NCBI GenBank assembly: GCA_028820655.1
Contig: JAPPIK010000015.1
Location: 1 to 64,000 of the forward strand
Reading direction: 5' to 3'
DNA length: 64,000 bases
From: Candidatus Poribacteria bacterium
GTDB taxonomy: Bacteria > Poribacteria > WGA-4E > JAJDTR01
The notes beneath the pieces were generated by a model. That model saw only the letters and a list, made by a program, of their open reading frames with translations, was not told where the DNA came from and ran no database searches. A program made the translations under genes and the position numbers. The stretch's first letter is position 1; the number at the start of each line of letters is the position of its first letter. This document shows positions 1-64,000 of this stretch, piece by piece.

Positions 1-404
1 TGAAAAATACAATTTGTAGGGTGCGCACTGCGCGCCAGCCTCCTCTAAAAGCCCCAGAGGGGATCAAGCGAACGGATAGTGAGTGCGATAGAGATCTTGA
101 AGGTGTATAGAAACACCGAACCCCCACGCATCTAAGCCCCAGAGGGGATCAAGCGAGTGGATAGCGAGTGCGATAGAGATCCCAAAGGTATATAGCGAGG
201 AATTACAAAAACATGAAAAAACTGTCTTCAAATGACGAAAGATGGCTTGGCTGCCGACTTTTCAAACACGTTCTATAGCTAATCTTCTGCCAATCATTTT
301 CTAGAGGAAATTTCTCACCAAATCGCTGATTCCCTCCTCTCTTTTCCTCTCCGTGCCAATATGCGGTCTACCTTCCTTCCAGCCCTTCCCGCTTCCATTC
401 AACG
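1..404. repeat. gene-free repeat-rich stretch
   Basis: No gene is visible. It opens with a copy of the family 'tgtagggtgcgcactgcgcg', followed by two copies of the GATC-bounded repeat family in reverse orientation (about 61-97 and 145-183; left half GATCAAGCGAGTGGATA, right half GCGAGTGCGATAGAGATC). The last ~70 bases before the first gene are strongly pyrimidine-rich on this strand. Confidence 0.7.
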
Positions 405-2024
405 CTACTTCAAGATCAGCATCCGCCGCGTGGCTTGAAACGCGCCAGCCCGAAGCGTATAGAAATAAACCCCGCTTGAAACCATCTCTCCGGTGATATC
501 TCTACCGTCCCAATATGCCGCTGTTTCCCTGTCGCGATAATCGCCGGCTTCTTGCGTCCCCAAATCCAACGCCCGCACCAGTTGCCCATGGATGTTATGG
601 ATGCGAAACGTGACCGGCGCGTCTCCCGCCAGTCGGTAAGGCAACCAGGTTTCCGGATTGAATGGATTGGGGAAGTTTTGATAGAGCGCCGTCCGTTTGA
701 GATGAGCCAAGGTCGTGATCTTCAAACCAAACGGCTCGACGGCGAAGGGCGGCGTGTTGAAGTGCTCTGCGCCGCTATAAACATACGCCACGATGCCGTT
801 ACCGACTCCGACGCCCTTTTCCGGTCCGTCGCAGCCGGTGACAATGACAGTGTCGCCGCTTATGGCGATCGCGGAGCCGTAAAAGAGGTTTGGATGTGCA
901 ACCTCGGGCAGCACCGTTGCGGTATTTTTCCAGACGCCGTCAGCATTCACGAAGGAATACGCGGCGCCCGCGCTGAATCCGCCCGCTTCGCTGAGCGGAG
1001 CGCCAACGATCGCGATATTTCTGCTGGTGGCGACGCCTGATCCAAAGTGATCGCCTTTTCGCTTCTTTGGCGCAGTCAGCTTTGCCGCCTGATTCCAGGT
1101 GTTTCCGTCGCGCTGAAAAATGTATGCAGCGCCTGCGTCTCTTATTCCGTCGGGATCGTTCTTTTTGGATCCTACGATGATAGTGTCGCCTTCCATGCCG
1201 ACCGAAACGCCGAACTGGTCACCGGCTCCCGCATCGTCAGCCGTGAGTTTGGCTTGTTCCCTCCACGTATCGCCATCGCGGACGAACACGAAAACCGCGC
1301 CGGCGAATCTTGTGCCGCCATGTGTGTGCCCGGTCGCCCCGACAATAAGCGTGTCAGCTTGGATCTTGACCGCATCACCGAACGCATCCAATTTCGCCGA
1401 ATCCTTGGGGACGAGCTTGGCGTGCTGTTTCCATCCGTTTGCATCGCGGACGAAGAGGTAAACCGCCCCGGAATTGTTGCCGGCATCATCGTCCCCGGGC
1501 GCGCCAACCACCGCGGTAGTGCCATCGATTGAGACCACATGCCCGAAAGCGTCTCTCTGCCCCGCGTCGGCCGCGGTAAGTTTCACCTCCTGTTGCCAGT
1601 GAGGTGAGTTGAAGGCGTAAATATAGGCTGCCCCGGCGTTTTCTGCGCCTTCGTCATCGCCCGGCGCTCCGATAATGGCATAATCCGCGTGTCTGCGCCC
1701 CGGCGGCGCGCTGATTGAGACATCGTACCCGAATCCCGCCTGCCCGGTATTCGGTTTTCGGTCGTGAGCGGTAAGTTCCGCGGTCAGTTCCCACTTGTTC
1801 CGGTTCAGTGTGTAGATTCTGCCGGCGCCGGGATGCCTGTCGTGGTCCACATTATGCCTACCGACAATTACGACATCTCCCACAATCTCGGCGGGCAGTC
1901 GGCCTCGATTGCGTATTCCCTCCTCGGCCCCGATGAGCTTGATTTCGCCTTCGGCGGCGTGGCTGTCGCTCCCGGACGCGATACCAAGTAAAAAACCGAT
2001 GGCAATTAACCGAATTAATTTCAT
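405..2024 (-). CDS. secreted FG-GAP beta-propeller protein with C-terminal sorting domain (paralog 1)
   Basis: Predicted secreted or surface protein of 539 residues. The first ~24 residues form a signal peptide (MKLIRLIAIGFLLGIASG, then a short polar stretch). The body consists of about seven repeats built around [TA].[AVI]VGAP.D......AGA.Y.[FY], the FG-GAP/integrin-type propeller repeat, each followed by W....KL.A.D. The last ~95 residues are a FlgD-like / type 9-style sorting domain starting at QNFPNPFNPETWLPYRL and ending SSGVYFYTLRAG. The start is placed at the second ATG because AAGGAG lies six bases before it, whereas the first ATG abuts the Shine-Dalgarno sequence. First of four tandem paralogs. 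The ligand is unknown; a role in adhesion or surface display is inference from family architecture. Confidence 0.85.
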   Translation of the reverse strand: MKLIRLIAIGFLLGIASGSDSHAAEGEIKLIGAEEGIRNRGRLPAEIVGDVVIVGRHNVDHDRHPGAGRIYTLNRNKWELTAELTAHDRKPNTGQAGFGYDVSISAPPGRRHADYAIIGAPGDDEGAENAGAAYIYAFNSPHWQQEVKLTAADAGQRDAFGHVVSIDGTTAVVGAPGDDDAGNNSGAVYLFVRDANGWKQHAKLVPKDSAKLDAFGDAVKIQADTLIVGATGHTHGGTRFAGAVFVFVRDGDTWREQAKLTADDAGAGDQFGVSVGMEGDTIIVGSKKNDPDGIRDAGAAYIFQRDGNTWNQAAKLTAPKKRKGDHFGSGVATSRNIAIVGAPLSEAGGFSAGAAYSFVNADGVWKNTATVLPEVAHPNLFYGSAIAISGDTVIVTGCDGPEKGVGVGNGIVAYVYSGAEHFNTPPFAVEPFGLKITTLAHLKRTALYQNFPNPFNPETWLPYRLAGDAPVTFRIHNIHGQLVRALDLGTQEAGDYRDRETAAYWDGRDITGEMVSSGVYFYTLRAGAFQATRRMLILK

Positions 2025-2361
2025 AAGCATCTCCTTACTGTGCTATTAGCTAGCCGTTAAGCGACATTAATCTGTTAAATCCGCGTAATCTGCGACTCAG
2101 ACAATCACTACCCTTCCCTCACTCTCTCCTCTCCCATCCTTCCATTCTTCCGCCTTCCCCGCCGACCATCGCACATCCCGTTTTCTCGCTTTCCCGTCCT
2201 CCCCTCCTTCCTACTCTTTGCTGCTTTTACCGGTCACTGACCACTGCTTCTCGACCCCGCCAACCCCAGTGGATAGCGAGTGATCAAGGGAGATCAACTG
2301 ACTAGATAAGGAAGGCGATAGAGATCCCATAGAGATCCACAGGTCACCCAGCCGCCGCTTC
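2025..2361. repeat. gene-free: pyrimidine-rich tract plus GATC-bounded repeats
   Basis: Bases about 2095-2265 are nearly all C/T on this strand and end in 'ggtcactgaccactg'; a reverse-oriented relative lies at 40676-40815. Bases 2271-2338 hold a composite of the GATC-bounded repeat in which one copy seems inserted within another. No gene seen. Confidence 0.6.
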
Positions 2362-3993
2362 CTACTTCACGATCACCATTCGCCGCGAATCACGGAACGA
2401 AGGTGTCGCCAATTCGTAGATATAAACACCGCTGGATACCGGCTCCCCTTCACCGTTTAAACCATCCCAATACGCCGCATTCCTACGATCGGTGTAATGG
2501 CCGGCACCCTGATGCCCCATCTCCAATCGACGTACCGGCGCCCCCGCAATATCATAAATTGTCAGCGAAACATTCGCGTCTGCCGCCAACTGATACGGCA
2601 ACCACGTCTCCGGGTTGAACGGATTGGGGAAGTTTTGATAAAGCGCGGTGCGCTTGACCTGTCCCAGCGTTTCAATCTTCAATCCAAACGGCTCGACCGC
2701 GAAGGGCGGCGTGCCAAAGTGTTCCTCTCCGCTATAAACGTATGCAGCCGTACCGTTACCGAAACCGGCAGCGACTTCCGGAGCGGCTCCCGAACCCACA
2801 ACAATCGTGTCACCGCTTATGGCAATCGTGGAGCCGAAAACGAGGTTGGGCGCGGCATCATCTGGTGCAACCGTTACCGCTTTCTCCCAAACTCCATTGA
2901 CATTAACGAAGGAATACGCGGCGCCTCCGCCGAGTCCGCCCTCTTTGCGGAGCGGTGCGCCCACGACGGCAATCTTGCCTGTAGTGGCAACTCCCGCTCC
3001 GAAGTGGTCGCCCTTTTTCTTCCCCGGCGCAGTCAGTTTTGCACCCTGTTTCCAGTTGTTTCCGTCACGGACAAAGATGTACGCGGCGCCGGCATCTTTT
3101 GTGCCGCCAGCATCGTTCAGCAGTGATCCGACAATGACGTTGTCCCCTTCAATGTCGACCGAAACGCCGAATCGGTCGCTGGGTGCAGCATCGTCGGCGG
3201 TGAGTTTAGCTCGTTCTCTCCACGCGTCCCCTTCGCGTACAAAAACGAAAACGGCGCCCGCGAATCTTACGCCGTCATGAGTGTGCCCGGGTGCGCCGAT
3301 AATAGCCGTGTCCTTTTGGATGTCGACAGCCTCGCCCAGCGCGTCTGATCTCGCCAAGTCCTTGGGTTTGAGCTTGGCATGTTGCTTCCATCCATTCGCA
3401 TCGCGCACGTAGACATAGGCCGCCCCTGCGTTTTTCGCGGCACCGATATCTGCCTTGGGCGCGCCAACGACCGCCGCGGTGCCATCAATCGAGACCACGA
3501 ATCCGAAAGCGTCTCCCGCCACAGCGTCCGCGGCGGTGATTTTCATCTCCTGTTTCCAGTTTTTCCCGCTGAACGCGTAGATGTAGGCTGCGCCGGCGTC
3601 TTTCGCGGCGCCATCGTCGCCCGGCGCTCCGATGATCGCATAGTCCGCGATTGTTCTCCCCGTGCGGCCGCTGAGGGAGACGGCGAACCCGAAACCCGAC
3701 TGCCCCGGTTTCGGTTGGTCGAGATTTCGGTCGTGGGCGACGAGTTCCGCGGTCTTTTCCCACTTTCTTCGATTGCGCGTGAATATTCTACCGGCGCCGG
3801 CAAGGTTGTTGACATCCACATCATGCACCCCGAGGATAATAACATCCCCGACTATATCGACGGGCATGCGCGTTCTGTTGCGGGCTCCCTCTTGGGCACC
3901 GATGAGCTTGATTTCGCCGTCGGCGGCGTAACTGGTGGTTACGGATGCGATTCCAAGTAAGATACTGGCGATGATGAACCGGAGCGTTTTCAT
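2362..3993 (-). CDS. secreted FG-GAP beta-propeller protein with C-terminal sorting domain (paralog 2)
   Basis: A 543-residue predicted secreted protein with the same plan as its neighbours: signal peptide ending near SYA-ADGE, about seven FG-GAP-type blades (for example AAVVGAPKADIGAAKNAGAAY), and a C-terminal domain starting at LYQNFPNPFNPETWLPYQL and ending SSGVYIYELATPSF. The start is the second ATG (AAGGA seven bases upstream). The body is very close to paralog 3, but its last ~70 residues (SLTIYDIAGAPVRRLEMG...) differ from paralogs 1, 3 and 4, which share a FRIYN.HGQL type. This suggests the sorting tail has been exchanged by recombination. It lies in a ~1.97 kb tandem duplication with paralog 3. 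Confidence 0.85.
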   Translation of the reverse strand: MKTLRFIIASILLGIASVTTSYAADGEIKLIGAQEGARNRTRMPVDIVGDVIILGVHDVDVNNLAGAGRIFTRNRRKWEKTAELVAHDRNLDQPKPGQSGFGFAVSLSGRTGRTIADYAIIGAPGDDGAAKDAGAAYIYAFSGKNWKQEMKITAADAVAGDAFGFVVSIDGTAAVVGAPKADIGAAKNAGAAYVYVRDANGWKQHAKLKPKDLARSDALGEAVDIQKDTAIIGAPGHTHDGVRFAGAVFVFVREGDAWRERAKLTADDAAPSDRFGVSVDIEGDNVIVGSLLNDAGGTKDAGAAYIFVRDGNNWKQGAKLTAPGKKKGDHFGAGVATTGKIAVVGAPLRKEGGLGGGAAYSFVNVNGVWEKAVTVAPDDAAPNLVFGSTIAISGDTIVVGSGAAPEVAAGFGNGTAAYVYSGEEHFGTPPFAVEPFGLKIETLGQVKRTALYQNFPNPFNPETWLPYQLAADANVSLTIYDIAGAPVRRLEMGHQGAGHYTDRRNAAYWDGLNGEGEPVSSGVYIYELATPSFRDSRRMVIVK

Positions 3994-4324
3994 AAGCATT
4001 TCCTTACCGTGCTCTAGAAGTCACTGCAACTAATGATTTCGCATGCTTGTGGATAGTGAAATTCCTCTGTACCACAATCTGTTAAGTTGTGGATTCCGGA
4101 AACTTACAGTGGGATGTTCTATCGCGCGCTCGCTATTCACTCGCTTGATTGGTACAAGGAAGTCGCGATGGGGAGAAGATTTCTATCGCACTCACTATCC
4201 GTTGGGTTGATTGCTACGACGAACTCCAGTTATTGTGACTTGTGGATTACCAATTGGCGCGAATTACGATAGCGCCATGATTATGATTTCTGTTTATTCT
4301 CCCCGATCGTGCCTACATTCTATG
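3994..4324. repeat. intergenic copy 1 of the duplicated spacer
   Basis: No gene. It holds a CACAATCTGTTAAGTTGTG palindrome-like motif near 4074 and two diverged GATC-family repeats (about 4123-4158 and 4188-4226). The whole spacer recurs at 5960-6289 with high identity, which marks the ends of the tandem duplication. Confidence 0.75.
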
Positions 4325-5959
4325 CTACTTCAGAATGAGCATCCGGCGGGTGGACTGGAATGCCCCTGCCTGTAGTGTGTAGAAGTAGATTCCGCTCGAA
4401 ACCATCTCGCCATGTTCATCTCTACCATCCCAATAGGCAGCCGTGTCTCTGGACAGATAATTCCCCGGTACTTGATTGCCCAGATCCAACTCCCGCATCA
4501 ATTGACCATGGGTGTTATAGATGCGAAATGTAACCGGTGTGTCTGTCGCTAGGCGGTAAGGCAACCAGGTTTCGGGGTTGAACGGATTGGGGAAGTTTTG
4601 TAAAAGTGCGGTACGCTTGACTTGCCCCAGCGTTTCGATCTTCAGTCCAAACGGCTCGACGGCGAAGGGCGGTGTGCCAAAGTGTTCCTCTCCGCTATAA
4701 ACGTATGCCGCCGTACCGTTACCATATCCGGCATGAGGAGTGGGAGCGGCTCCACCTCCGAGAACAATCGTGTCGCCGCTTATAGCAACCGTAGAGCCAA
4801 GTAGAAGGTTTGGTCCGGGCTCATCGGGCACAACCGTTGCCGCGTTCTTCCAAACGCCGTCAACATTAACGAAGGAATACGCGGCACCCGCGCCGAGTCC
4901 GTCCTCTTCGCGGAGCGGTGCGCCAACCACGGCGATCATGCCGGTAGTGGCAACCCCTGCCCCGAAGCGGTCCCCCTTTCGCTTCTCCGGCGCAATCAAT
5001 TTTGCTTGTTGCGTCCACGTAGTTTCGTTACGGACAAAGATGTACGCGGCGCCGGCATCTTTTGTGCCGCCAGCATCGTTCAGCAAAGATCCGACAATGA
5101 CGGTGTCACCTTCAATGTCGACCGAAATGCCGAATCGGTCGCTGGATGCAGCATCGTCGGCAGTGAGTTTCGCCTGTTCCCTCCACGCATCCCCGTCACG
5201 CACAAAAACGAAAACGGCGCCCGCGAACCTGACGCCGCCATGAGTGTGCCCGGGCGCGCCGATAATAACTGTGTCCTTTTGGATGTCCACAGCCTCGCCC
5301 AGCGCGTCTGATCTCGCCGAATCTTTCGGAATGAGTTTCGCGTGTTGTCTCCATCTGTTCGCATCACGCACGAAGACGTAAGCAGCCCCGGCGTTTTTCG
5401 CGGCGCCAATATCTGCCTTGGGCGCGCCAACCACCGCAGTGGTGCCATCGATCGAGACTACGAATCCGAAAGCATCTCCCGCCGCCGCGTCACCCGCTGC
5501 AAGTTTTATTTCCTGTCTCCAGTTTTTCCCGTTTGAGGCGTAGATGTAGGCTGCCCCGGCGTCTTTCGCGGCACCGTTGTCGCCCGGCGCTCCGATGAGG
5601 GCATAATCCGCTGTTGTTCTCCCCGTGCGGCCGCTGAGGGAGACGGCGAATCCGAAACCGGATTGCCCCGGTTTCGGTTGGTCGAGATGTCGGTCGTGGG
5701 CAAGGAGTTCCGCCGACTGTTCCCATTTGTTTTTTCGGATCCGCGTGTAGATTCTGCCAGAGCCGAGAATATTGTTGATATCCACATCGTGTACGCCGAC
5801 GATAATGACATCTCCGACAACATCGACCGGCATACGCGCTCGATTGAGTGCGCCGTCTCCGGCTCCGATGAGCTTGATTTCGCCGTCGGCGGCGTGGATG
5901 GTGCTGCCCGAGGCGATGCCAAGTATAAGGCCTACAACGATGAACAGTGTTGTTTTCAT
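4325..5959 (-). CDS. secreted FG-GAP beta-propeller protein with C-terminal sorting domain (paralog 3)
   Basis: A 544-residue predicted secreted protein with signal peptide MKTTLFIVVGLILGIASG, FG-GAP blades (for example TVIIGAPGHTHGGVRFAGAV) and C-terminal sorting domain LLQNFPNPFNPETWLPYRL ending in SSGIYFYTLQAGAFQSTRR. It is nearly identical to paralog 2 through most of the propeller. The leader differs: where paralog 2 has GTAAGGAAATGCTT before the ATG, this copy has GTAAAAAAATGCTT, so the Shine-Dalgarno core is lost. Translation may therefore be weak, although the reading frame is intact. The start is assigned by analogy with the paralogs. Confidence 0.82.
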   Translation of the reverse strand: MKTTLFIVVGLILGIASGSTIHAADGEIKLIGAGDGALNRARMPVDVVGDVIIVGVHDVDINNILGSGRIYTRIRKNKWEQSAELLAHDRHLDQPKPGQSGFGFAVSLSGRTGRTTADYALIGAPGDNGAAKDAGAAYIYASNGKNWRQEIKLAAGDAAAGDAFGFVVSIDGTTAVVGAPKADIGAAKNAGAAYVFVRDANRWRQHAKLIPKDSARSDALGEAVDIQKDTVIIGAPGHTHGGVRFAGAVFVFVRDGDAWREQAKLTADDAASSDRFGISVDIEGDTVIVGSLLNDAGGTKDAGAAYIFVRNETTWTQQAKLIAPEKRKGDRFGAGVATTGMIAVVGAPLREEDGLGAGAAYSFVNVDGVWKNAATVVPDEPGPNLLLGSTVAISGDTIVLGGGAAPTPHAGYGNGTAAYVYSGEEHFGTPPFAVEPFGLKIETLGQVKRTALLQNFPNPFNPETWLPYRLATDTPVTFRIYNTHGQLMRELDLGNQVPGNYLSRDTAAYWDGRDEHGEMVSSGIYFYTLQAGAFQSTRRMLILK

Positions 5960-6289
5960 AAGCATTTTTTTACCGTGTTCTCAAAGTCATTGCAACTAAT
6001 TATTTCGGATGCCTGTGGATAATGAAATTCCTCTGTACCACAATCCGTTAGATTGTGGATTCCGGAAACTTACAGTGGAATGTTCTATCCCGCTCGCTAT
6101 TCGCTCGCTTGATTGGTACAAGGAAGTCGCGATGGGGAGAAGATTTCTATCGCACTCACTATCCGTTCGGTTGATTGCTACTACGAACCTCCATTTATTG
6201 TGACTCATGGATTACCAATTAGCATGAATTACGATGGCGCCATGACTATGATGCTTGTTTATTCTGCCCGATCGGGCCTACATTCTATG
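5960..6289. repeat. intergenic copy 2 of the duplicated spacer
   Basis: Near copy of 3994-4324: palindrome-like CACAATCCGTTAGATTGTG near 6038, two diverged GATC-family repeats (about 6080-6114 and 6146-6180), and the same 'attaccaatt' sequence before the next stop codon. No gene seen. Confidence 0.75.
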
Positions 6290-7909
6290 CTACTTCAGAA
6301 TGAGCATACGTCGGGTGGATTGGAACGTCCCAGCCTGGAGCGTGTAGAAGTAGACTCCGCTCGAAACCATTTCGCCTGATTGATTCATGCCATCCCAATA
6401 GGCTGCCGCTTCTCGGGACAGATAATCACCGGCCGCTTGAACGCCCAGATTCAACTCTCGCACTAGCTGCCCGTGGACATTATAAATGCCGAAGATCACC
6501 GGTGCGCCGGTCGCCAACCGGTAAGGCAACCATGTCTCCGGGTTGAACGGATTGGGAAAGTTCTGATGCAGTGCGGTACGCTTCATCTGCCCCAGCGTCG
6601 TCACGGCCAAACCAAAAGGCTGCACCGCGAACGGGGGCGTTCCGAAATCCTCAATACTGCTATATACGTAGGCGGCCGTTCCGGTACTCCTTGCGGCGAC
6701 ATTGTGCGGCGCCGCCCCTGCGGAAACAACCACGGTATTTTCGCTCATGGCGACCCAGGTGCCGAATCGGGTGTTCAGTCCGGCGTCTTCGGGCACGACC
6801 CTTTCCCGCTCCTCCCAGACGCCGTCAACATTTACGAATGAATATGCCGCGCCCGACGCGAGCGCGTTTTCTTCGTGCACATTTGCGCCGATAATGGCAA
6901 TTTTTCCGGTGGTTGCAACACTCGTCCCAAAATGGTCGTTCTTGCGTGTGCCCTTGGCTGCAAGTTTTGCCCCATGTTTCCACGTGTCTCCGTCAAGCGA
7001 GAAAACGTAGACGACCCCCGCGTCCTTTCCCGCTTGCGTATCGCGCAACGGCGCCCCGACGAGGAGTGTCTTGCCGCTCAGAGCGAGGGAATTGCCGAAC
7101 CGATCACTGGCTGCGGCGTCGTTCGCGGTGAGCTTTGCTTTTTGCCGCCACGCATCGCCCTCGCGCGTGAAGATGTAAACGGCGCCCGCGAATCTTGTAT
7201 CGCCGTGCGTGTGTCCGGGCGCTCCCACAATAACGGTGTCGCCTACAATGAGGACGGCCTCCCCAAAGGCGGACGATTTTCCCAAATTTTGGGGGACGAG
7301 TTTCAAATGCTGATTCCAACTGTTTCCATCTCGCACGAAGACATAGGCTGATCCGGAGTTGCTGCCGTCATCATCGTCCTTCGGTGCCCCAACGACCGCG
7401 GTGGTTCCGTGAATGGAGACGGCGAAACCGAAGGCATCGCCAGCCGCTCCGTCACCGGCGATAAGTTTCCCCTGCTGTTTCCAATTCTTTCCACTGCGGG
7501 CAAAGATATATGCGGAGCCGGATTTCGCGCCGGCGGCATCGTCCTGCGGCGCTCCGACGGCGGCAGAGTCAGCGCTGCCCCGCTGACCGACACGGCTGAT
7601 GGAGACCGACCATGCAAAGTCGCCGGCGCCGGGATTCGCCGGGTCGCGGTCTCCGGGGTGAAGTTCGGCCGTGCGGTTCCACTTCTTTCCGTCCCACTCG
7701 AAGATTATGGCGATGCTGTCCTTTTTGTTGTGCGCCAATATAAATCCTCCGAGGATGAGGGAGTCTCCGATGATATCGACGCACACGTGGCTGTTTGTCG
7801 CTCCCTTGTCGACACCAATCAGCTTGACACCCTTTCCGGCAAAGGCAGTTGCCGTCATTAATCCAAGGATACAGCAGACGAGGATGCGCTTTGGTATCTT
7901 CATCATCAT
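6290..7909 (-). CDS. secreted FG-GAP beta-propeller protein with C-terminal sorting domain (paralog 4)
   Basis: A 539-residue predicted secreted protein, the most diverged of the four paralogs. It has signal peptide MKIPKRILVCCILGLMTATAFA, propeller blades such as TAVVGAPKDDDDGSNSGSAY, and the sorting domain LHQNFPNPFNPETWLPYRL to YFYTLQAGTFQSTRR. The open frame continues 73 codons further upstream, but that extension has no family similarity. Three ATGs in a row follow GGAG at 7901-7909, so translation starts at one of them (7909 used here; 7903 gives the best spacing). It was probably the first gene of the array to diverge. Confidence 0.83.
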   Translation of the reverse strand: MMMKIPKRILVCCILGLMTATAFAGKGVKLIGVDKGATNSHVCVDIIGDSLILGGFILAHNKKDSIAIIFEWDGKKWNRTAELHPGDRDPANPGAGDFAWSVSISRVGQRGSADSAAVGAPQDDAAGAKSGSAYIFARSGKNWKQQGKLIAGDGAAGDAFGFAVSIHGTTAVVGAPKDDDDGSNSGSAYVFVRDGNSWNQHLKLVPQNLGKSSAFGEAVLIVGDTVIVGAPGHTHGDTRFAGAVYIFTREGDAWRQKAKLTANDAAASDRFGNSLALSGKTLLVGAPLRDTQAGKDAGVVYVFSLDGDTWKHGAKLAAKGTRKNDHFGTSVATTGKIAIIGANVHEENALASGAAYSFVNVDGVWEERERVVPEDAGLNTRFGTWVAMSENTVVVSAGAAPHNVAARSTGTAAYVYSSIEDFGTPPFAVQPFGLAVTTLGQMKRTALHQNFPNPFNPETWLPYRLATGAPVIFGIYNVHGQLVRELNLGVQAAGDYLSREAAAYWDGMNQSGEMVSSGVYFYTLQAGTFQSTRRMLILK

Positions 7910-8539
7910 GAATCTCCATTCACTGTTGCTGGTCAGGATTGTGCAATTTATTTCGAGCGGCGACGGCTCGATTCCGCGTACATCCGTGTAGCCTGCAACG
8001 AATATTGGACGTGGTATTTTTTTGGTGCGACATCTTTCCAAAAATAACCTGGATTGTGATGGCATCGACCAACGATGTTTGCGGCCCACGGGGCTCTCTA
8101 TGGGATCTCTACCGCGTTCGCTATTCACTCACTTGCTGGATCTCTACCGCGTTCGCTATTCACTCACTTGCTGGATCTCTACCGCGCTTGATTTCCACTC
8201 GCTTGATCCTATAGGATTGTGCGTGAAAGAAATCAAGTTTTCAAGAAAAAACTTGATTTCGGTGGTTTCGGGAAAAAACTCGGCTTCTGCGCTTTCGAGA
8301 TGAGAGCGCACAACTTGGATTAACTCTGAAATTGCGCTTGAAGCCTTAACCGGAGAGGCTTGAAGCGCCACGGGAGTGCGCTAAAGTGCGCGCGTATTTT
8401 TCGGTCCACTTATTGAGGAACGCCCAGAAAGCGGGTTAGATAGTATTGATTCCGCTAGGAATATGCCTCGCTCAATCTGGTTCCCCATCCGGTCTTTACT
8501 AGTCTTAGTGAACGCTTGGATCCCTATCGCACTCGCTGT
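7910..8539. repeat. gene-free: tandem GATC-family repeats and an A/T hairpin
   Basis: Bases 8100-8209 carry three head-to-tail partial copies of the GATC-family repeat, joined as '..cacttgctggatctctaccgcg..'. Bases 8228-8262 form an AAATCAAGTTTT / AAAACTTGATTT hairpin that recurs at 33409-33443. Another family copy lies at 8518-8554. No convincing gene. Confidence 0.65.
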
Positions 8540-8766
8540 CCACTCGCTTGATCACCGCTTTTCTCTTGAAGCGATATAGTGAAATGAGATGCCAACGGAG
8601 CGTCGATTTAAGCGATGTGTTGACATTTCCTGAATTTGAGAATTCCTTTGCTGGAGCGGGTTCTCAGGATTCGTAGTGCCAACAAAATGCCAAAAAGAAA
8701 ATAATGTTACACCGCCATGGCGGATGGTACCGTATAATATACCACACAACTGTTAAGTTTTCAATG
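8540..8766 (-). repeat. conserved promoter-plus-leader element, copy A
   Basis: On the minus strand this begins with a sigma70-like promoter (TTGAAA, 17-base spacer, TATATT), then a ~200-base leader with GTTRGCAT-type motifs, including GTTGGCAC, inverted ATGTCAAC and GTTGGCATC. The same order of blocks occurs on the plus strand at 34937-35140 (for example ACCCGCTCC.GCAAAGG.ATTCTC, CGCTTAAATC and TCGCTTCAAG). Both copies run directly into a GATC-family repeat. The 65-codon frame across this copy is not kept in copy B, so the element is probably not coding. Confidence 0.6.
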
Positions 8767-9121
8767 TAAAAGTAACGAATTGCGGGCGGGAAGAAAAGTG
8801 GAAAATTTCAATCAAGGCACAGTTTTTCAAATCTAACCAAGGAGCGAAAAATGGGTGTCGTTCGATCATGCGCTATACAGATTGGGCTATGCTGGCGCTT
8901 GTAAAGGCTGGTGCGCGGGGAGTGGCCACATCACGATTCTATTGACATTGCACTCCGCTGGAGTGCAGGAATTAGGATCGTCGCCTTCTATAGACATTGG
9001 GGAATTCGATCGCAGTCACTTTTCGTTCCCTTGATCGCTCATTATTCATTCGCTTGATTGCAGTGCGCACCCTACAAGGAATGGTGGGCGGTGCCCACCC
9101 TACATATGTGCAAAGGGGAGC
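8767..9121. repeat. gene-free: hairpin and 'gtgcgc' repeat families
   Basis: Contains the GCACTCC-gct-GGAGTGC hairpin (8950-8966) with its usual lead-in ATTGACATT, a diverged GATC-family pair (8999-9059), and the 'tacaaggaatggtgggcggtg' family near 9075. No gene seen. Confidence 0.6.
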
Positions 9122-11345: not shown

Positions 11346-12097
11346 TTTTCTTCTTTTGCCTTTCCGTTCAAGTAACATTCGACATTGCACTCCGCTGGAG
11401 TGCAGACGCGGGGTGGAATCGTGTTCTATTGACATTGCACTCCGCTGGAGTGCAGGAATTAGGTTCGTCGCCATCTACAGACAATGGGGATCTCTATCGC
11501 GGAATTTGGTATCGTGCGCGCTATTCGCTTGCTTTATCGCCGGTGCCGCCCTCAAAGGCTGGTGCGCAGTGCGCACCCTACATATGTACAAAGTCGAGCT
11601 TACCGCTGGATTTGCCAATCCAGCAGGAGCGGGGAGTGGGTGCATCACGATTCTATTGACATTGCACTCCGCCGGAGTGCAGGAATTAGGTTCGTCGCCA
11701 TCTACAAACATTGGGGATATCTATGAGATCTCTATGGGAATTCTATCGCGGTCGTAATTCGCTCCCTTGATTCCATCCTACAACTATTCGCTCGCTTAAT
11801 CCTACGGAATTGTGCGAGATAGAAACCAAGTTTTCAAGAAATAGTATAAGAAACGTGTCTCCATGGCTGTTCTCCTTTCTTTCTCAATAGTGCTTTCCAA
11901 CTTGCCCCATTAATTATACTATCCGCAAAGCGCTTAGGGGCAATATGCAAGTAGAACATGCTGCCAGCTTGTTCCAATGCGCTCAATTGAGTCTTTGAAC
12001 GAGCTAGCGGCACGTTCTACGAGATTAACTGAAAAACTCTTATTTGCAACTGATTAACAGCATCAATCGACATACATGCTGAAAGTCTGCTAATTCT
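11346..12097. repeat. gene-free: clustered hairpin and GATC-family repeats
   Basis: Three GCACTCC/GGAGTGC hairpins (11387-11403, 11437-11453, 11664-11680), each inside the longer unit 'attgacattgcactccgctg', plus 'caggaattaggttcgtcgcc' after two of them. Diverged GATC-family copies lie at 11486-11540 and 11713-11800, and a 'gcagtgcgcaccctacatat' copy lies at about 11567. Bases 11800-12097 show nothing recognisable. Confidence 0.6.
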
Positions 12098-13427: not shown

Positions 13428-13680
13428 TATACCATTTCTCTAAAATGCGAGTGCATTAATTACGCGGATCAAGTAAAGATTCTTGAGTGGAGGAAAGTAA
13501 GAAGCCTCGTCTCGGCGCAAAGCCAGCAGGGCAAGGGGATTTGCTATCGCCATCGCTATTCACTCCGTTGATGGATCTCTATCGCACTCCTTGTTCAGTC
13601 GCTTGATTCCCGCCTACGATGAACGAGAACGATATGGTTAAGACATCTTATGCACTATTATTCAAGCGAAATGGTATTAG
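13428..13680. mobile_element. MITE-like element, copy 1
   Basis: About 253 bases bounded by imperfect terminal inverted repeats: left 'tataccatttctctaaaatg' with 'gcgagtgcattaat' just after, right '..atgcactattattcaagcga' running into 'aatggtatta'. A second copy with the same ends lies at 16436-16610. Two GATC-family repeats are nested inside (13537-13613). The right end truncates the TolB-like gene at a TA dinucleotide, consistent with a TA-targeting MITE mobilised by a Tc1/IS630-type transposase (inference). Confidence 0.6.
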
Positions 13681-16397: not shown

Positions 16398-16777
16398 GTT
16401 GGGTTTCACTCAAATTTTGGCGCGTTCAAGCGAAATAATACCATTTCTCTACATTCGCAGTACATTAATAGCGTCAATCAAGTTCTACCAAGGCGGGGCA
16501 AGGGGATCTCTATCGCACTCCTTGTTCAGTCGCTTGATTCCCGCCTGCGGAATAGGGAAACGATATGGTTAAGGCGTCAAATGCACCTTTATTCAAGCGA
16601 AACGGTATAAGCACTCGCTTGAGGGATTTCTATCGCAGGATTTTCTATCGCACTCGCTATTCACTCGTTTGATCTCATTATCCATTCGCTTGAGGGATTT
16701 CTATCGCGCTCATTATCCATTCGCTTGATCCTACAAGATTAGCGATTATTAACAGATTTCCGTTCAACCCAACCTAC
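16398..16777. mobile_element. nested repeat element with GTTGGGTTTC / AACCCAACC ends
   Basis: Bounded by GTTGGGTTTCACT at 16398-16410 and CAACCCAACCTAC at 16765-16777, the ends of a small element also present at 61388-61498 and 63724-63824. In this copy a MITE (16436-16610) and several GATC-family repeats (16611-16735) appear inserted inside it, so insertion order can be read: outer element first, then the MITE, then or with it the GATC repeats. Confidence 0.5.
16436..16610. mobile_element. MITE-like element, copy 2
   Basis: Same termini as 13428-13680 (left 'ataccatttctct..gtacattaat', right 'ttattcaagcgaaacggtat') but shorter. It carries one GATC-family repeat at 16500-16545 with the same variant text as copy 1 (CACTCCTTGTTCAGTCGC), so that repeat travelled with the MITE. 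Confidence 0.6.
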
Positions 16778-31922: not shown

Positions 31923-32669
31923 ATGCAAAGCTCACTGATGGGAGTCTGTCCCAAAACGGGGAAAGTGCGCGTGGTAGAGAAGCCCAGTCACCTGAGCTTC
32001 TCCCCAGTTCGAACCCATCGTGCCCGATTCAGGCAATGGGCTCAAGACAGAATGGTTCGCCTCGAAAGGCTATCCTTCTCACGTTTGTCGCCGTTATTCA
32101 TTGAGGTTCTGATGACCTCATAACGTGTCGATGAAAAGGGGCATTCTGCCCAGCGTCCTTCCCTCTGCGAGCATTACTTCGCTTCTCCGGTACTATGACC
32201 CATCCGACAACCTGACAATCATCTTGGCTTCCTCGCTTTTACACTTGTTAGCCAATACTCAAAATTCGGAGAATTGTCAGGTTCTCCCACGTTTACCTAA
32301 GCTCGACTTTGTACAAAAGTACAAAGGCTGGGTTGTAGCGAGAACCGTACAACACCAAGCCCGTAGACGGGAATCAAGCGAGCGGATAGCGAGTGATCAA
32401 GTGACCGAATAGGGAACGCGATAGAACTCCCATAGAGATCCCCTTGCCCCGTCGTGATGGTACCGGAAGCCACTACCGACTTTTTCACAGATTAACCAAA
32501 AGAGCCAGATGGTTAAAATCTCACCCGCTTTTCTTCAACGCTTAATTGACATCGATTGTTATCCCACTTAAATGTACAAAGTCGAGCTTAGCGCTTCCGA
32601 CGGGAGTATGACAATCGAGTAGCTGAGGGCAAAATCGACTTTACGGGAGTCATACACCACCACATTTTC
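31923..32669. repeat. gene-free: IS scar and GATC-family repeats
   Basis: The first ~60 bases match the sequence after the 17 kb transposase tail. Bases 32369-32445 hold a composite GATC-family array in reverse orientation. 'tgtacaaagtcgagctta' sequences occur near 32300 (inverted) and 32574. No convincing gene. Confidence 0.5.
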
Positions 32670-33186: not shown

Positions 33187-33508
33187 GACGGAGAAGATTT
33201 GCGATTTTGCCCCAAGCGGAGGTAGTTATTGGTTTATTTTCCGAAAAAATATGGTTAGTGTTGGGTGCCGGTGCGGTTGGAAGGGATCTCTATGGGATCT
33301 CTATCGCGGTCACTAACCGTTCCCTTGATCACTCGCTATCCACTCGCTTGATCACCTACGGGGTTGCAGGAATACCAATGCTCGGTTTCGGGGCGCGGTG
33401 CGAGAGAAAGAAATCAAGTTTTCAAGAAAAAACTTGATTTCGACGGTTTCGGCGTTCTAAAGACATTCGGATTTTCTGAACAATCTCCATCAAGTATGGA
33501 GGAGGGTA
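33187..33508. repeat. gene-free: GATC-family repeats and A/T hairpin
   Basis: A GATC-family composite at 33284-33356 (one copy partly duplicated: gggatctctatgggatctct) and the AAATCAAGTTTT / AAAACTTGATTT hairpin at 33409-33443, also seen at 8228-8262. The PhyH ribosome site GGAGGAGGG lies at the end. Confidence 0.6.
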
Positions 33509-35145: not shown

Positions 35146-35459
35146 GGGATCAAGCGAGTGGATAGATCAAGTGACTGAATAAGGAACGCGATAGAAATCC
35201 AGCAAGTGAGTGAATAGCGAACGATCAAGAGAATGAATAATGACTGTGGGAGCGATTTCCGAATCGCGATAGCCCTCTGTAGGAGCGATCTCCAGGTCGC
35301 GATTCAGCAGTCGTAGGGTGGGCACCGCCCACCAGCCTCTAAAAGCCCCGGAGGGGATCAAACGAGCGGATAGCGAGTGATCAAGTGACCGGATAGGATC
35401 AAACGAGTGAATAACGAGTGCGATAGAAATCTTCGTGCGATAGAAATCCCATAGAGATC
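35146..35459 (-). repeat. dense array of nested GATC-family repeats
   Basis: At least five overlapping partial copies in one orientation, e.g. GATCAAGCGAGTGGATA followed at once by GATCAAGTGACTGAATA, and again near 35354-35459. A 'ggagcgatctccaggtcgcg' hairpin-like repeat (35282-35301) and 'gtagggtgggcaccgcccac' (35312-35331) are interposed. The clearest example of self-nesting in the window. Confidence 0.6.
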
Positions 35460-40815: not shown

Positions 40816-41553
40816 GGGATTGTCTGAATGACGGATTACGGGGATCTCTACCGCGCTCGCTATTCACTCGCTTGCTGGATTACACGGATTGGGAAGGATC
40901 GGCGGCGGCGAGGGGTGGAACCGAGGATTTGATGGCGGTTTGTCCTGCAGATTAGCCGGACACACGGCACTCCGCTGGAGTGAAAACCTTCTACGACGGA
41001 ACACCTTCTCAAAGCCTGTCATATATCAAAAGACGAGTGTAACTTGCTGAATGAGTTATACCGACAGGGATAATGGCGTGCTATCAAGTAACACTTATTC
41101 AGAGCTAGCCATAGAACGAAATATGAGTGACTCTTGATGATGCACTATACACATTGGGGATCTCTATCGCATTCACTACTCGCTCATTTGATCTATCCGC
41201 TCAGTTGATCCCATGCCGGGGCTTAAGTGAGCGGGCAACGACGTTGCTATATACCTTTCGCGCCACTGGTGCTTCCGAAGGCTGGTGCGCAAGAGGTTCT
41301 CAATCACCCTTTTATTCAATCGGTCAGTCGCACGCTATAAAGTAGGCAGAATAACCCAACTCAACAATGACCTCCAACTCAACCTAAACCGCTTGCGGTA
41401 TTAATCAATTTTGTTCAAACTAATATGGTTGCATTTTTTTCTCGAGTCCAACCTCTCCAAGTTTTCTCAAGAAAGTCTCATTGTTCATAGCAAAAAAGAT
41501 AAGACTGGATCATAAGAGTTACCAATCGAGTTTCAAGACTACTCATCTACAAT
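40816..41553. repeat. gene-free: mixed repeat field
   Basis: GATC-family copies at 40840-40881 and 41157-41213; a CAAGTAACAC-ended mini-element at 41038-41094; a half hairpin 'gcactccgctggagtg' near 40967. Bases 41340-41553 show nothing recognisable. Confidence 0.55.
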
Positions 41554-41853: not shown

Positions 41854-42533
41854 GATCTGCCTCCATTTTAGGTCAATGGTTTATTGAGAAGTTTTCAATT
41901 CCTCCCCAACCCTTAAAGGTATGGTGAGCGACGGCCACCCTAACATATGTACAAAGTCGAACTCAGTTAACTAAACCTACCCTCTGACATTGCACTCCTC
42001 TGGAGTGAAAACCCTTCTACGAAGGAACACCTTCTCAAAGCCTGTCATAGATTCAAAGACGTAGTGTTACTTGCTGAAAGAATCATTCCGAGAGGGATAA
42101 TGGGGTGCTACGAAGTAACACTCGACATTGCCGGGATCTCTATCGCGGTCGTAATCCACTCCCTTGATCCGCTGGAGTGCAGGAATTGGGTTCGTCGCCT
42201 TTTTCGGAAATTTGGGATCTCTATCGCAGAATTTGCTATCGCGCGCACAATTCGCTTGCTTGATCTCTATATTTAGTCGCTTGATTGCGCCTTACAAGGA
42301 ATGGTGGGCAGGGGATTCGCTATCGCGCTCGCTAATCACTCGTTTGATTTCACCCTACAACTTATCAGTCGCTTGATCCGCCGGAGTGCATGAGATGGAA
42401 AATCTCTGCCAAAGTTGACCAAGGCGCTAAAAACAAGAGTTACTTGCCTGAAAGAATCATTCCAAAAGAATTGTTGGAGTGCTCTCAAACGTAGGGGAAC
42501 GCGCTTTTGCGGGGTTTGTCGAAGCGACCGCGG
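41854..42533. repeat. gene-free: mixed repeat field
   Basis: A GCACTCC-type hairpin (41992-42006), a CAAGTAACAC mini-element (42064-42121), a second degenerate one (about 42437-42490), and GATC-family copies at 42132-42171, 42213-42291 and 42312-42384. No gene. Confidence 0.55.
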
Positions 42534-43592: not shown

Positions 43593-44104
43593 TATGTTCC
43601 TCCTTCGTTAAACGCCTTAGAGCATGTTTGAATAATCAGTAGCAAAGCCATTTTTTTCACTTATAGGAAGTTTTTTCATGTATTTATTGTTGTCTGTCAC
43701 CTACCTGTGGGATCTCTACCGCGCTCGCTATCCACTCGCTTGCTGGATCTCTATCGCACTCGTTATCCACTCGCTTGATCCCCGCTGGGGCTTGGTGCAC
43801 GGGGCTTTGGGCGTTTCTATACACCTTCAAGATCTCTATCGCACTCACTATCCGTTCGCTTGATCCCCTCTGGGGCTTTTAGGGGCCGGTGCGCAGTGCG
43901 CACCCTACAAAATGTACTTTTCAAACAGGCTCTTAATTTGGCTAGTACTCATGTTTCCCGTTGACACGTTAATTCACGATTCTCTAGAGACAGCGGAATT
44001 TGGCGTAATCCGGTCAGGTGTTACAATAGAGGCTGCCCGTTGTTCATCCTCTCTGTTCTGAAGACAAAATCGGGGTTAAGCGGGATCGGGCGGGTTGTGT
44101 CGTC
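43593..44104. repeat. gene-free: GATC-family repeats
   Basis: Well-preserved copies at 43708-43788 (two joined as '..cgcttgctggatctctatcg..') and 43829-43868, then the 'gtgcgcagtgcgcaccctac' family near 43889. No gene. Confidence 0.65.
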
Positions 44105-53315: not shown

Positions 53316-53387
53316 TAGCGCTACGGGGAATCGAACCCCGGTTTGATGGCTGAGAACCACCCGTCCTAACCCCTAGACGATAGCGCC
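53316..53387 (-). tRNA. tRNA-Glu (anticodon CTC)
   Basis: Full cloverleaf on the minus strand: acceptor GGCGCTA / TAGCGCT, D-arm CGTCTAGGGGTTAGGACG, anticodon stem GGTGG / CCATC with loop TTCTCAG (anticodon CTC), T-arm CCGGGGTTCGATTCCCCG. CCA is not encoded. Four bases separate it from the tRNA-Gln gene, so they share a transcript. Confidence 0.93.
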
Positions 53388-53391
53388 CAAT

Positions 53392-53465
53392 TGGCTGCCC
53401 GGGAAGGACTCGAACCTTCGCAACATGGTCCAGAGCCATGCGTCCTGCCATTAGACGACCGGGCA
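53392..53465 (-). tRNA. tRNA-Gln (anticodon CTG)
   Basis: Full cloverleaf on the minus strand: acceptor TGCCCGG / CCGGGCA, D-arm CGTCTAATGGCAGGACG, anticodon stem CATGG / CCATG with loop CTCTGGA (anticodon CTG), T-arm GAAGGTTCGAGTCCTTC, discriminator G and encoded CCA. First of the two-tRNA transcript. Confidence 0.93.
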
Positions 53466-53966
53466 ACACTAGATATGTTTATTATATTATAGCAAAATAC
53501 ACGCTCTCTGTCAAGTGTTTGAATCGCACAATCGACAACGACTCCGGAATACTTGAAAGTCTTGAATCATCAAAGCCCCGAATTCCCTTCTAATTCAGCC
53601 GATGTGTCCGAGACAGAGCAGACCTTTCGCCCCGCTTGGGCTTGGTAATGAAAGCGTCCATTGATTCTATACACCTTCAGGATCTCTATCGCGCTCACTA
53701 TCCGTTCACTTGATCCCCGCTGGGACTATAGAGCGTAAAACTAATGAAGCAAGAAACAGCCGCCGTGGTTATTGTTATCGTGAAGGCGACTGAAAGATTT
53801 CAGATGCGTTTCCCCCGAGGATTCCACACTTGACGATGGGGACAGAACTCGGCTATAGTGTCTATCAGATTGCGTCCCTGCCCCAAACAACATCATGGTC
53901 CTCTCCCTGCTGCAACTTATCGCCATCCGCTGATGACTCTGCGAATCATAACGGTAGGAATAGACA
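53466..53966. repeat. gene-free with one GATC-family repeat
   Basis: A well-preserved copy at 53678-53720 with the 'ttctatacaccttcag' lead-in seen also near 43810 and 105. No gene. The sulfatase ribosome site (AGGA) lies at the end. Confidence 0.6.
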
Positions 53967-56345: not shown

Positions 56346-56730
56346 CCTCGTAAAACGCAAGAAAATTACGACAGCGAATGACGCAGTGATAGAAAGTCGC
56401 CTCTCCCTTACTGTGTTCCTCACTGAACGCCCTGCAAATCGGGGCAATCCATTGGATAAAACGAGTGAAAAATGAGTACGATAGTAGATCCTACGCGATA
56501 GCTTGTCCTGATTTACACGCTCTATCGGCTTCGGCATTTCGTTGCGTGGATTTTTACTGAACATCAAGCGAACGAATAATGAGCCGGATTTGCTATCGCC
56601 TTCGCTTTTCGCTCAGTTGAGCGATAGAGGTCCCCTGGTCACTTTATTTCTCTCGCTACAAAAACCGAATCAAATACGGTGACCGCCCCACCTCCAAGCC
56701 TTCTGGTGCTGTCTTCCCCGGAACGCACTC
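56346..56730. repeat. gene-free with diverged GATC-family repeats
   Basis: Diverged copies at 56453-56491 and 56562-56635; in the latter two copies face each other. No gene. Confidence 0.5.
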
Positions 56731-60198: not shown

Positions 60199-60547
60199 GA
60201 CCCTCTCTTCTGTGTGTTTGCTCTCTGACATTCCATCGCCGAGAGTTTCATATGTCCTTCGTGTGTATGGATGATAACATATGCGAGGGTACAAATAAAG
60301 CATGGCTAACACGTTGGTTGGGTTGAACGTCGCCGGTGAATACTACCGAGCTTTCCAGGTAGCTATCGAGGGTTAAACTCGCCTGGCGTCTCCCGAATCT
60401 AGTGGAACCCATCTTGATACTCATCTTCCGCATAATAGTCTCGTGTAATCTCGAATTTTCACATCCTAGATTTTAGGGCATATCTCCACGAACGGGCAAA
60501 AATCACCTAGATACTTCCGCGAGTCCGATCGATTAACCGATTTTCCC
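60199..60547. other. gene-free stretch
   Basis: Upstream region of the S9 peptidase; nothing recognisable except the 5' part of its long open frame. Confidence 0.4.
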
Positions 60548-61300
60548 TATCAAGTAACACTTTTTCAAAACCAATCTTAGAGAAGGAAATCTGAACCACA
60601 ATCTGTTAGATTGTGATCCGCAAGCTAACAGTTTGCGGTACAAGAGTGTTGCTTGCTGAATGAATTATTCCGACAGGGATAATGGGGCGCGCTCAAGTAA
60701 CACTCGACATTGCACTCCTCTATCAAGTAACACTTTTTCAAAACCAATCTTAGAGAAGGAAATCTGTACCACAATCTGTTAGATTGTGATCCGCAAACTA
60801 ACAGTTTACGGTACAAGCGTGTTGGTTGCTGAATGAATTATTCCGACAGGGTTGATGGCGTGCTATCAAGTAACACTCGACATTGCACTCCGCTGGAGTG
60901 CAGACGCGAGGAGTAATCGTGTACTATTGACATTTCACTCCGCTGGAGTGAAAACCAGACCACGAAGGAACACTTTTACGGCCAGTCATAGAGCGAAAAA
61001 TTAATGTGACCCGCTGATGGATTGTGATCGCAAACTAACAGTTTGCGGTACAAGAGTGTTGGTTGCTGAATGAATTATTCCGACAGGGATAATGGGGCGC
61101 GCTCAAGTAACACTCGACATTGCACTCCTCTGGAGTGCAGACGCGAGGAGGAATCGTGTTCTATTGACATCTCGCTCCGCCGGAGTGAAAAACATGCCGG
61201 TAAGGAACGTTATTGCAGAGCCTGTCACGGAGCGAAGAAGGCGTGTTACTTGCTGAAAGAATTATACCGACAGGGATAATGGCACGCTGTCAATCATGAT
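60548..61300. repeat. tandem 173-bp duplication and CAAGTAACAC mini-elements
   Basis: Bases 60548-60720 are repeated at 60721-60893, and a third partial copy starts near 61012. Each unit holds a CACAATCTGTTAGATTGTG palindrome, a CAAACTAACAGTTTGCG-type palindrome and a mini-element with ends GTGTTGCTTG/CAAGTAACAC (60646-60702, 60819-60876, 61056-61113, degenerate 61242-61300). GCACTCC/GGAGTGC hairpins follow (60885-60901, 61122-61138). No gene. Confidence 0.65.
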
Positions 61301-63824: not shown

Positions 63825-64000
63825 GTACCTGAGTATACGCTAGGGTATGTTGACATTTATGTAAGGTGTGTCCATAATTCGCCCATAAGTCTCTATTTTA
63901 GAGGAGAGGTAAGATCTCTACCGGTCTTCTATCGCGCTCGCGTTCCACTCGCTTGATCCCAACCTCTACGGAAATTGACCCAATGTAGGGGCGGTCATTG

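What the first reader, a model, noticed from the sequence alone, without database searches (positions are those of the whole stretch)
35146..35459. A self-nesting GATC-bounded repeat family confined to intergenic DNA
About 30 or more copies occur across the window (e.g. 61-97, 145-183, 8100-8209, 8518-8554, 13537-13613, 16611-16735, 32369-32445, 33284-33356, 35146-35459, 41157-41213, 42132-42384, 43708-43868, 53678-53720, 63912-63962). The unit reads GATCAAGCGAGTGGATA followed by GCGAGTGCGATAGAGATC; it starts and ends in GATC and has two internal near-repeats of GCGAGTG.GATA. I saw none inside an intact gene. Many copies are interrupted exactly at a GATC or GTG by another copy, as if the unit inserts into itself. 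The unit is not palindromic, so it is not a classic REP hairpin, and spacing is irregular, so it is not CRISPR. It may be a minimal mobile sequence or a protein-binding array.
Basis: seen in the sequence. Interest (0 to 1): 0.68.

Follow-up and report, generated by a model that had tools for sequence, protein, structure and literature searches.

The report
Self-nesting 36-base hairpin jumping element
A bacterium of the Poribacteria carries about a thousand copies of a 36-base DNA hairpin that appears to jump: it lands at fixed points inside other small repeats and inside its own copies, like nested brackets, making it one of the smallest mobile sequences seen, with the enzyme that moves it still unknown.

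Summary
The repeat is real: 362 matches to an 18-nt core in the genome, 0 for the reversed control, and 744 matches to the structural motif.

The unit is ATCAA-hairpin-G-CG-ATAGARATCYY, about 36 nt. It replaces 2-5 nt of its target, most often exactly CG in GCGR. Targets are GTAG-headed REP-like hairpins, a GCCCC..GGGGCG repeat, and two points inside itself, so nesting is bracket-like. Comparing with a congeneric genome gives occupied/empty orthologous sites in both directions. GTAG hosts are widespread in the order; the unit is abundant in only three genomes.

Best reading: a non-autonomous mobile hairpin acting as one DNA strand; the enzyme is unidentified. RAYT-type transposases are present but not specific; reverse transcriptases are absent or sub-threshold in the three carriers. 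Closest known kind: cyanobacterial SDR elements and REP/REPIN. New variant of a known kind.

The parts
35149..35165 (+). 5' half of a unit (ATCAAGCGAGTGGATAG), interrupted at its loop-side G|CG|A point
   Evidence: sequence; loop-nest rule
35166..35200 (+). complete unit, head 35166-35188 plus tail
35201..35246 (+). two further heads (AGCAA- and ATCAA-type), the second followed by a TGTGGGAGCGATTTCC.. repeat instead of its tail
   Evidence: sequence
35279..35301 (+). empty GTAG-headed host repeat H4, GTAGGAGCGATCTCCAGGTCGCG
   Evidence: sequence; empty class
35313..35333 (+). empty GTAG-headed host hairpin H2, GTAGGGTGGGCACCGCCCACC
   Evidence: sequence; empty class
35345..35356 (+). host repeat H1, GCCCCGGAGGGG, whose CG has been replaced by the nested units that follow
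35357..35459 (+). triple nest: head, interrupted head, head, then three tails
63..98 (+). single unit in host H1 (GAGGGG-unit-GAAGGTGTATAG)
148..183 (+). single unit in host H1, consensus sequence
2293..2338 (+). unit with an extra residual tail (nested)
4116..4211 (-). two units beside a GTAG site; duplicated together with the flanking paralogous genes (compare 6080-6175)
6080..6175 (-). two units, paralogous to 4116-4211
8102..8207 (-). three units in tandem, period 35
8517..8552 (-). single unit
9013..9058 (-). nested pair of heads with degraded tail
11736..11771 (-). unit followed by further residual tails
13537..13607 (-). two units in a GTAGGCGGG host (H3)
16503..16538 (-). single unit in a GCAGGCGGG..GCCCCGCC host (H3-like)
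16611..16729 (-). nested array, three heads and three tails; the region is 50 nt in the related genome against 292 nt here
32373..32441 (+). nested pair (two heads, two tails) in a GTAGACGGG host
33283..33352 (-). nested pair (two heads, two tails)
40841..40876 (-). AGCAA-type single unit
41157..41209 (-). half unit followed by complete unit
42133..42364 (-). cluster of several units, some in GTAGGGTG hosts
43709..43779 (-). two units in tandem in host H1
43829..43864 (-). single unit in host H1
53679..53714 (-). single unit in host H1
56563..56633 (+). unit interrupted at the hairpin foot by an inverted unit
63922..63957 (-). unit with an extra residual tail

Best explanation
The repeat is a non-autonomous mobile element of about 36 nt, ATCAA-[NN GA NN G RATA NN GA NN]-G-CG-ATAGARATCYY. 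Its bracketed part folds, on this strand only, into a hairpin: 2 bp, tandem G.A/A.G, 2 bp, loop GRATA closed by G.A. Shown: the hairpin by covariation; the exact junctions; insertion by replacing 2-5 nt of the target (usually the CG of GCGR); target preference for GTAG-headed REP-like hairpins, a GCCCC..GGGGCG repeat and two GCGA points in its own sequence; fixed orientation within GTAG hosts; polymorphism between two species. Because each copy brings a fresh GCGA, insertion can recurse, giving bracket-like nests (n heads, then n tails). Inferred: it moves as single-stranded DNA, the folded strand being recognised by a transposase acting in trans (a Y1/HUH enzyme of the RAYT type is the best candidate) or joined to hairpin-bearing strands during replication. 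The enzyme, and why 2 nt are lost, are not shown.
For: Copy number: 362 (core) and 744 (structural motif), controls 0. Covariation: the 4 predicted pairs are the top 4 of 406 column pairs by mutual information; 94.5% paired against 61.6%, 100 cells changed on both sides against 19.9, 0/500 shuffles, all slid controls far lower; repeated in the other family, G004, 88.5% against a shuffle maximum of 74.0%. One-strand structure: 73 G.T against 20 A.C, p=3e-8. Junctions: H1 GGGG-CG-RAAGG empty in 10 of 11, occupied in nine simple sites by a 36-nt ATCAA..ATCYY or close variant; H4 GTAGGAG-CGAY-CTCC, about 70 empty, same junction when occupied across several downstream variants; self, exactly CG replaced in 28 of 38 distinct foot nests. 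Orthologous sites: G000 C22:93109 occupied against G001 C30:46253 empty, single-hit flanks 91%/419 bp and 92%/409 bp; G001 C30:12415 occupied against G000 C22:285266 empty; C4:286488. Hosts are older: H4 repeats in 33 of 40 genomes of the order against three unit-rich genomes. Orientation in GTAG hosts 31 direct, 0 inverted; not linked to gene direction, 93 against 72. RVT_1 absent in G000 and G004, one sub-threshold match in G001.
Against: No enzyme is linked to it: RAYT-family genes are in 23 of 25 relatives, including those without the unit, and proximity is not significant. Loss of 2-5 target nt is not how IS200/IS605-type insertion is known to work. Some spread between copies of one host repeat could be gene conversion rather than fresh insertion. 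Nearest-neighbour folding does not see the hairpin (DNA parameters), so its stability rests on covariation. The host repeat in a complete relative shows no chromosome-scale strand split by eye, so a replication link is unproven. A few self-insertions are inverted (C4:301143, window 56563, G001 C123:52178).
Confidence: 0.62

Rival explanations
1. RNA-mediated mobility, as proposed for the Nostoc SDR elements: the unit is transcribed, the RNA hairpin inserts into RNA hairpins or primes at them, and reverse transcription returns it to the chromosome.
For: Structure is on one strand and tolerates G.U-type wobbles; targets are themselves hairpins.
Against: No RVT_1 match in G000 or G004 and only one below cut-off in G001, while 11 of 25 genomes, none of them one of these three, have one above cut-off. 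Orientation is independent of flanking genes.
Confidence: 0.15
2. Spread mainly by ectopic gene conversion among host repeats: a few ancient insertions were copied between homologous host repeats and hosts with copies in them.
For: Hosts are themselves repeats; larger composite blocks recur in the related genome.
Against: The same GCGR replacement occurs in unrelated contexts (H1, self foot, self loop) and analogous small replacements in H2-H4; occupied H4 copies keep different downstream variants; the unit also nests inside itself.
Confidence: 0.15
3. Template switching at replication forks: hairpins in single-stranded DNA stall synthesis and the polymerase copies in another hairpin unit, without a dedicated transposase.
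For: Strand orientation is coherent along contigs (chi2 p=5e-8; adjacent clusters 10-30 kb apart agree in 72%); nests are nearly always in the same orientation.
Against: Junctions are too precise (28 of 38 foot nests replace exactly CG) for microhomology-driven events; no consistent homology at the ends.
Confidence: 0.2
4. A functional RNA or protein-binding motif (terminator, mRNA-stability or regulatory element) kept by selection on genes.
For: Intergenic confinement; modest excess between convergent genes (49 of 256 clusters against 12.6% of intergenic DNA).
Against: No Rfam match, no orientation relative to genes, presence/absence differences between species, nesting inside other repeats.
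Confidence: 0.05

Closest known systems
SDR (small dispersed repeat) elements of Nostoc (Elhai et al. 2008, doi 10.1101/gr.074336.107; paper not held here, abstract recalled from memory; secondary mentions in PMC4390886 and PMC3116915)
   Same: Very small dispersed repeats, compensatory changes in a hairpin, nested copies, insertion at a precise point in other repeats (SDR5 in HIP1, per PMC4390886).
   Different: Cyanobacteria, 21-27 nt (from memory); here 36 nt, Poribacteria, tandem G.A hairpin, 2-5 target nt replaced, GTAG hairpins as main hosts, little sign of a reverse transcriptase.
GTAG REP sequences / REPIN / BIME mobilised by RAYT (TnpA_REP)
   Same: Short extragenic hairpins in hundreds of copies; strand-specific; the host repeats here carry GTAG and a stem and lie beside several Y1_Tnp genes.
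   Different: The unit itself has no GTAG head and no Watson-Crick palindrome; it inserts into GTAG repeats rather than being one.
IS200/IS605-derived small elements (Y1 HUH transposase, single-stranded DNA)
   Same: Strand-specific hairpin recognition, fixed orientation in the target.
   Different: No target loss is known there; no autonomous parent element was found here.
Insertion sequences that target REPs (IS1397 and others; cited in PMC3116915)
   Same: Use REP hairpins as landing sites.
   Different: Those are full insertion sequences with a transposase gene; this unit is 36 nt and codes for nothing.

Membership tests
SDR-type very small mobile elements (Elhai 2008) | Dispersed in high copy, intergenic | tested here: met
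SDR-type very small mobile elements (Elhai 2008) | Hairpin supported by compensatory changes | tested here: met
SDR-type very small mobile elements (Elhai 2008) | Nested copies and precise insertion into other repeats | tested here: met
SDR-type very small mobile elements (Elhai 2008) | Length 21-27 nt, cyanobacterial families SDR1-8 (from memory) | tested here: not met
   unit 36 nt; named records are Candidatus Poribacteria. The SDR sequences themselves were not available for comparison
SDR-type very small mobile elements (Elhai 2008) | RNA intermediate (proposed) | tested here: inconclusive
   no RVT_1 above cut-off in the three unit-rich genomes; genomes 92-96% complete
GTAG REP / REPIN | GTAG tetranucleotide at the foot of the hairpin | tested here: not met
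   unit begins ATCAA; GTAG near it belongs to the host repeat, 62 of 153 first heads against 2.7% expected
GTAG REP / REPIN | Imperfect palindrome with Watson-Crick stem | tested here: not met
   2+2 bp around tandem G.A; no stable fold by energy
GTAG REP / REPIN | Association with a RAYT gene | tested here: inconclusive
   7 of 14 Y1_Tnp genes have a unit within 700 bp, background 27%, p=0.05
CRISPR array | Regular spacing with unique spacers | tested here: not met
   irregular spacing, nests, scattered single copies
IS200/IS605-derived element | Insertion without loss of target bases next to a fixed short target | tested here: not met
   2-5 nt replaced
Known structured RNA (Rfam 15) | Match to a family at gathering score | tested here: not met
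   only two tRNAs in the window

The most novel reading that the evidence does not exclude
A distinct class of minimal DNA transposon: a 36-nt single-strand hairpin held together by tandem G.A pairs that replaces a GCGR dinucleotide in other hairpin repeats without an RNA intermediate, and that regenerates one or two target sites in every copy, so that it multiplies recursively inside itself as a parasite of REP repeats.
Probability: 0.35. Interest if true: 0.82.

Novelty: new variant of a known kind. Interest (0 to 1): 0.62.

Why it matters
It would be one of the smallest mobile DNA sequences with exact insertion rules known from natural experiments: structure, target and product are all defined to the base, and occupied/empty pairs exist in two species of one genus. 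That makes the open question of how elements too small to encode anything move in bacteria directly testable, and it adds a layer to REP biology: REP hairpins as landing sites for a second, even smaller hairpin. It also warns that hairpins built on tandem G.A pairs are missed by eye and by standard folding and are seen only through covariation.

Tried and rejected
CRISPR: irregular spacing and nests. Known RNA family: no Rfam match. RAYT as specific partner: Y1_Tnp is general in the order and proximity is not significant. G004 C9:92.5-99 kb at first looked like an element-flanked RAYT, but the units sit in H1-type host repeats that flank the gene. Reverse transcriptase: none above cut-off in the three unit-rich genomes. 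Orientation by gene direction: none. Orientation by GC skew: weak and inconsistent between contigs (skew is small in this genome); the host repeat in a complete relative shows no obvious chromosome-scale split. GATC-GATC terminal stem: the head ATC is nearly invariant while the tail varies, without compensation, so no covariation support. Serine-recombinase-like exchange at the CG core: it would leave two CGs flanking the insert, which is not seen. Viral contigs: 0 matches. The G014 copies are probably mis-binned, as G014 and G001 are bins of one assembly and at least 8 of its 19 matches sit on one 15.5-kb contig.

Full report
1. Observation. The window (64 kb of a 5.88 Mb, 61-contig genome, G000) holds the repeat at all listed places. 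Thirty-two 35-mers match the consensus with up to 9 mismatches and none do in a shuffled window. In the whole genome the 18-nt core has 362 matches with up to 2 mismatches and the reversed control 0. A structural motif that leaves the arm bases free (ATCAANNGANNGRATANNGANNGCGATAG, up to 1 mismatch) has 744 matches in G000, 664 in a genome of the same genus (G001), 203 in a genome of another family of the order (G004), 19 in G014, and 0-2 in each of the other genomes among 85 of the phylum; all controls are 0. G014 and G001 are bins of one assembly and at least 8 of G014's 19 matches lie on one 15.5-kb contig, so these are probably mis-binned. The figure of about a thousand copies is an extrapolation: 333 heads in the 1.61 Mb of G000 scanned, from contigs partly chosen for having copies, against 744 strict matches in the whole genome.

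2. It is a hairpin. The unit looks like a direct repeat, GCGAGTG GATA GCGAGTG, but GCGAGT pairs antiparallel with GCGAGT: G.T, C.G, G.A, A.G, G.C, T.G. Among 143 distinct copies picked by conserved positions only, the four predicted Watson-Crick/wobble positions are exactly the four column pairs with the highest mutual information out of 406. On 64 aligned copies 94.5% of cells form standard pairs against 61.6% (sd 2.2) when shuffled, with 100 cells changed on both sides against 19.9, 0 of 500 shuffles as high, and slid controls at 21-58%. The G.A, A.G and loop-closing G.A positions are 93-96% constant. In the distant genome G004 24 distinct copies give 88.5% against a shuffle maximum of 74.0%. 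G.T wobbles outnumber A.C mismatches 73 to 20 (p=3e-8), so selection acts on the ATCAA strand. Energy-based folding as DNA does not show the hairpin, because the stems are 2 bp each side of tandem G.A; this explains why it was taken for non-palindromic.

3. Ends and insertion. In the host repeat H1 the empty form is GGGG-CG-RAAGG (10 of 11); nine simple occupied forms read GGGG-[ATCAA...ATCYY, 36 nt]-RAAGG or a close variant. In GTAG-headed hosts: H4 GTAGGAG-CGAY-CTCC (about 70 empty) becomes GTAGGAG-[ATCAA...GATCTT]-CTCC with the same junction before several downstream variants (CTCCAGG, CTCCGAA, CTCCCGG, CTCCGGG); H3 GTAGGCGGG-G(C/G)ATCTT-GCCCCGC becomes GTAGGCGGG-AATCAA...ATCCCCTT-GCCCCGC; H2 GTAGGGTG(C/G)-GCA.. 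becomes GTAGGGTG(C/G)-RATCAA...ATCYY... In all, 31 counted insertions in GTAG hosts are in the same orientation and none inverted. Of 153 outermost heads 62 have GTAG within 14 nt upstream, against 2.7% per 14-mer expected. The leading G of 'GATC' is host sequence.

4. Self-nesting. In 1.79 Mb of G000, 40 heads are directly followed by another head; truncated upstream heads stop mainly at nt 17-18 (18 cases) or 23 (31 cases). Both points fit G|CG|A of the consensus unit. After the inner tail the outer tail resumes; in 28 of 38 distinct foot nests exactly CG has been replaced, leaving ATC-CC-ATAG. Nests therefore read like brackets, for example three heads followed by their tails at C15:177010. 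Three inverted self-insertions were seen, at C4:301143, window 56563 and G001 C123:52178.

5. Presence and absence between species. With single-hit flanks, G000 C22:93109-93167 carries a nested pair (71 nt) where G001 C30:46253 has GTAGGGTGC-GCAA-TGCGCACC (flanks 91% over 419 bp and 92% over 409 bp). G001 C30:12415 carries a unit where G000 C22:285266 has GGGAGGGG-CATCT-TGCCCCG. G000 C4:286488 carries one where G001 C20:201861 has the empty hairpin. A nearby unit, C22:93735, is shared by both. So insertions arose, or were lost, after the two species split, and both directions occur. The host repeat H4 is in 33 of 40 genomes of the order, up to 321 copies, including many without the unit, so the hosts are older and the unit is the newcomer.

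6. Context. Of 523 heads 11 lie in ORFs of 200 aa or more, which cover 72% of the DNA (ORFs called mechanically). Orientation relative to co-directional neighbouring genes is near even (93 same, 72 opposite). Orientation is coherent along contigs (C13 16:2, C24 0:12, C9 9:0; chi2 p=5e-8), as a replication-linked process would give, but GC skew is too weak to assign a strand and the host repeat in the complete relative G015 shows no chromosome-scale split by eye. I leave this unexplained.

7. Machinery. Y1_Tnp (RAYT/IS200-type) genes: 7 in G000, 4 in G001, 3 in G004, and in 23 of 25 relatives overall. Several lie among GTAG repeats, as in REPtrons, but units are not significantly nearer to them than to other short ORFs (7 of 14 against 27%, p=0.05). 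RVT_1: none in G000 and G004, one sub-threshold in G001, while 11 of 25 genomes, none of these three, pass the cut-off. This weighs against an RNA intermediate, within the limits of draft genomes. TnpA_REP and IS200/IS605 enzymes act on one strand and recognise hairpins (PMC8266576), which fits the one-strand structure and fixed orientation; loss of target bases does not fit what is known of them.

8. Verdict. Shown: real, genome-wide, a covarying one-strand hairpin, inserted at defined points with small target loss, nested in itself, polymorphic between species. Inferred: movement through single-stranded DNA by an enzyme acting in trans. Not shown: the enzyme, the intermediate, the fate of the lost bases, and whether some copies spread by gene conversion. 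The closest known kind is the cyanobacterial SDR (Elhai et al. 2008, recalled from memory; cited in PMC3116915 and PMC4390886), together with REP/REPIN. It shares how SDRs behave but not their length or lineage, and it fails the defining features of a GTAG REP. I file it as a new variant of a known kind.

Noticed in passing
window 35279-35333 and genome-wide: Several families of GTAG-headed hairpin repeats (GTAGGAGCGAYCTCC.., GTAGGGTGSGCACY.., GTAGGCGGGGCATCTTGCCCCGC) and an AAGCCCCAGMGGGGCGAAAGGTGTATAG repeat are abundant; the first is widespread in the order. They serve as hosts of the unit.
   Followed up: partly
G000 C13, C24, C9; G001 C33, C99: Strand orientation of units is coherent over 40-150 kb while independent of gene direction; GC skew does not explain it.
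   Followed up: partly
window 405-8128: Four tandem paralogous genes; the three tested carry FG-GAP_2 repeats and a FlgD_ig domain. Unit pairs between them (4116-4211, 6080-6175) are duplicated along with the genes.
   Followed up: partly
window 60547-60891: A 173-bp sequence in two tandem copies, 93% alike.
   Followed up: no
window 53316-53465: Two adjacent tRNA genes on the minus strand.
   Followed up: no
L215 (JAAXGF010000400.1): A unit nest in a GTAGGGTGG host on a contig labelled Alphaproteobacteria (Plut_88856); perhaps a mis-binned Poribacteria contig.
   Followed up: partly
L224 (G004:C9:85001-105000), around record position 92932: A Y1_Tnp gene flanked on both sides by the GCCCCAGCGGGGC repeat, a REPtron-like arrangement for host H1; units lie in some of these repeats.
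   Followed up: partly
window 8102-8207, 43709-43779: Tandem units of the AGCAA type have tail CGGTAG instead of CGATAG: a linked change at two positions (T to G in the head, A to G in the tail) that is not a standard base pair.
   Followed up: no
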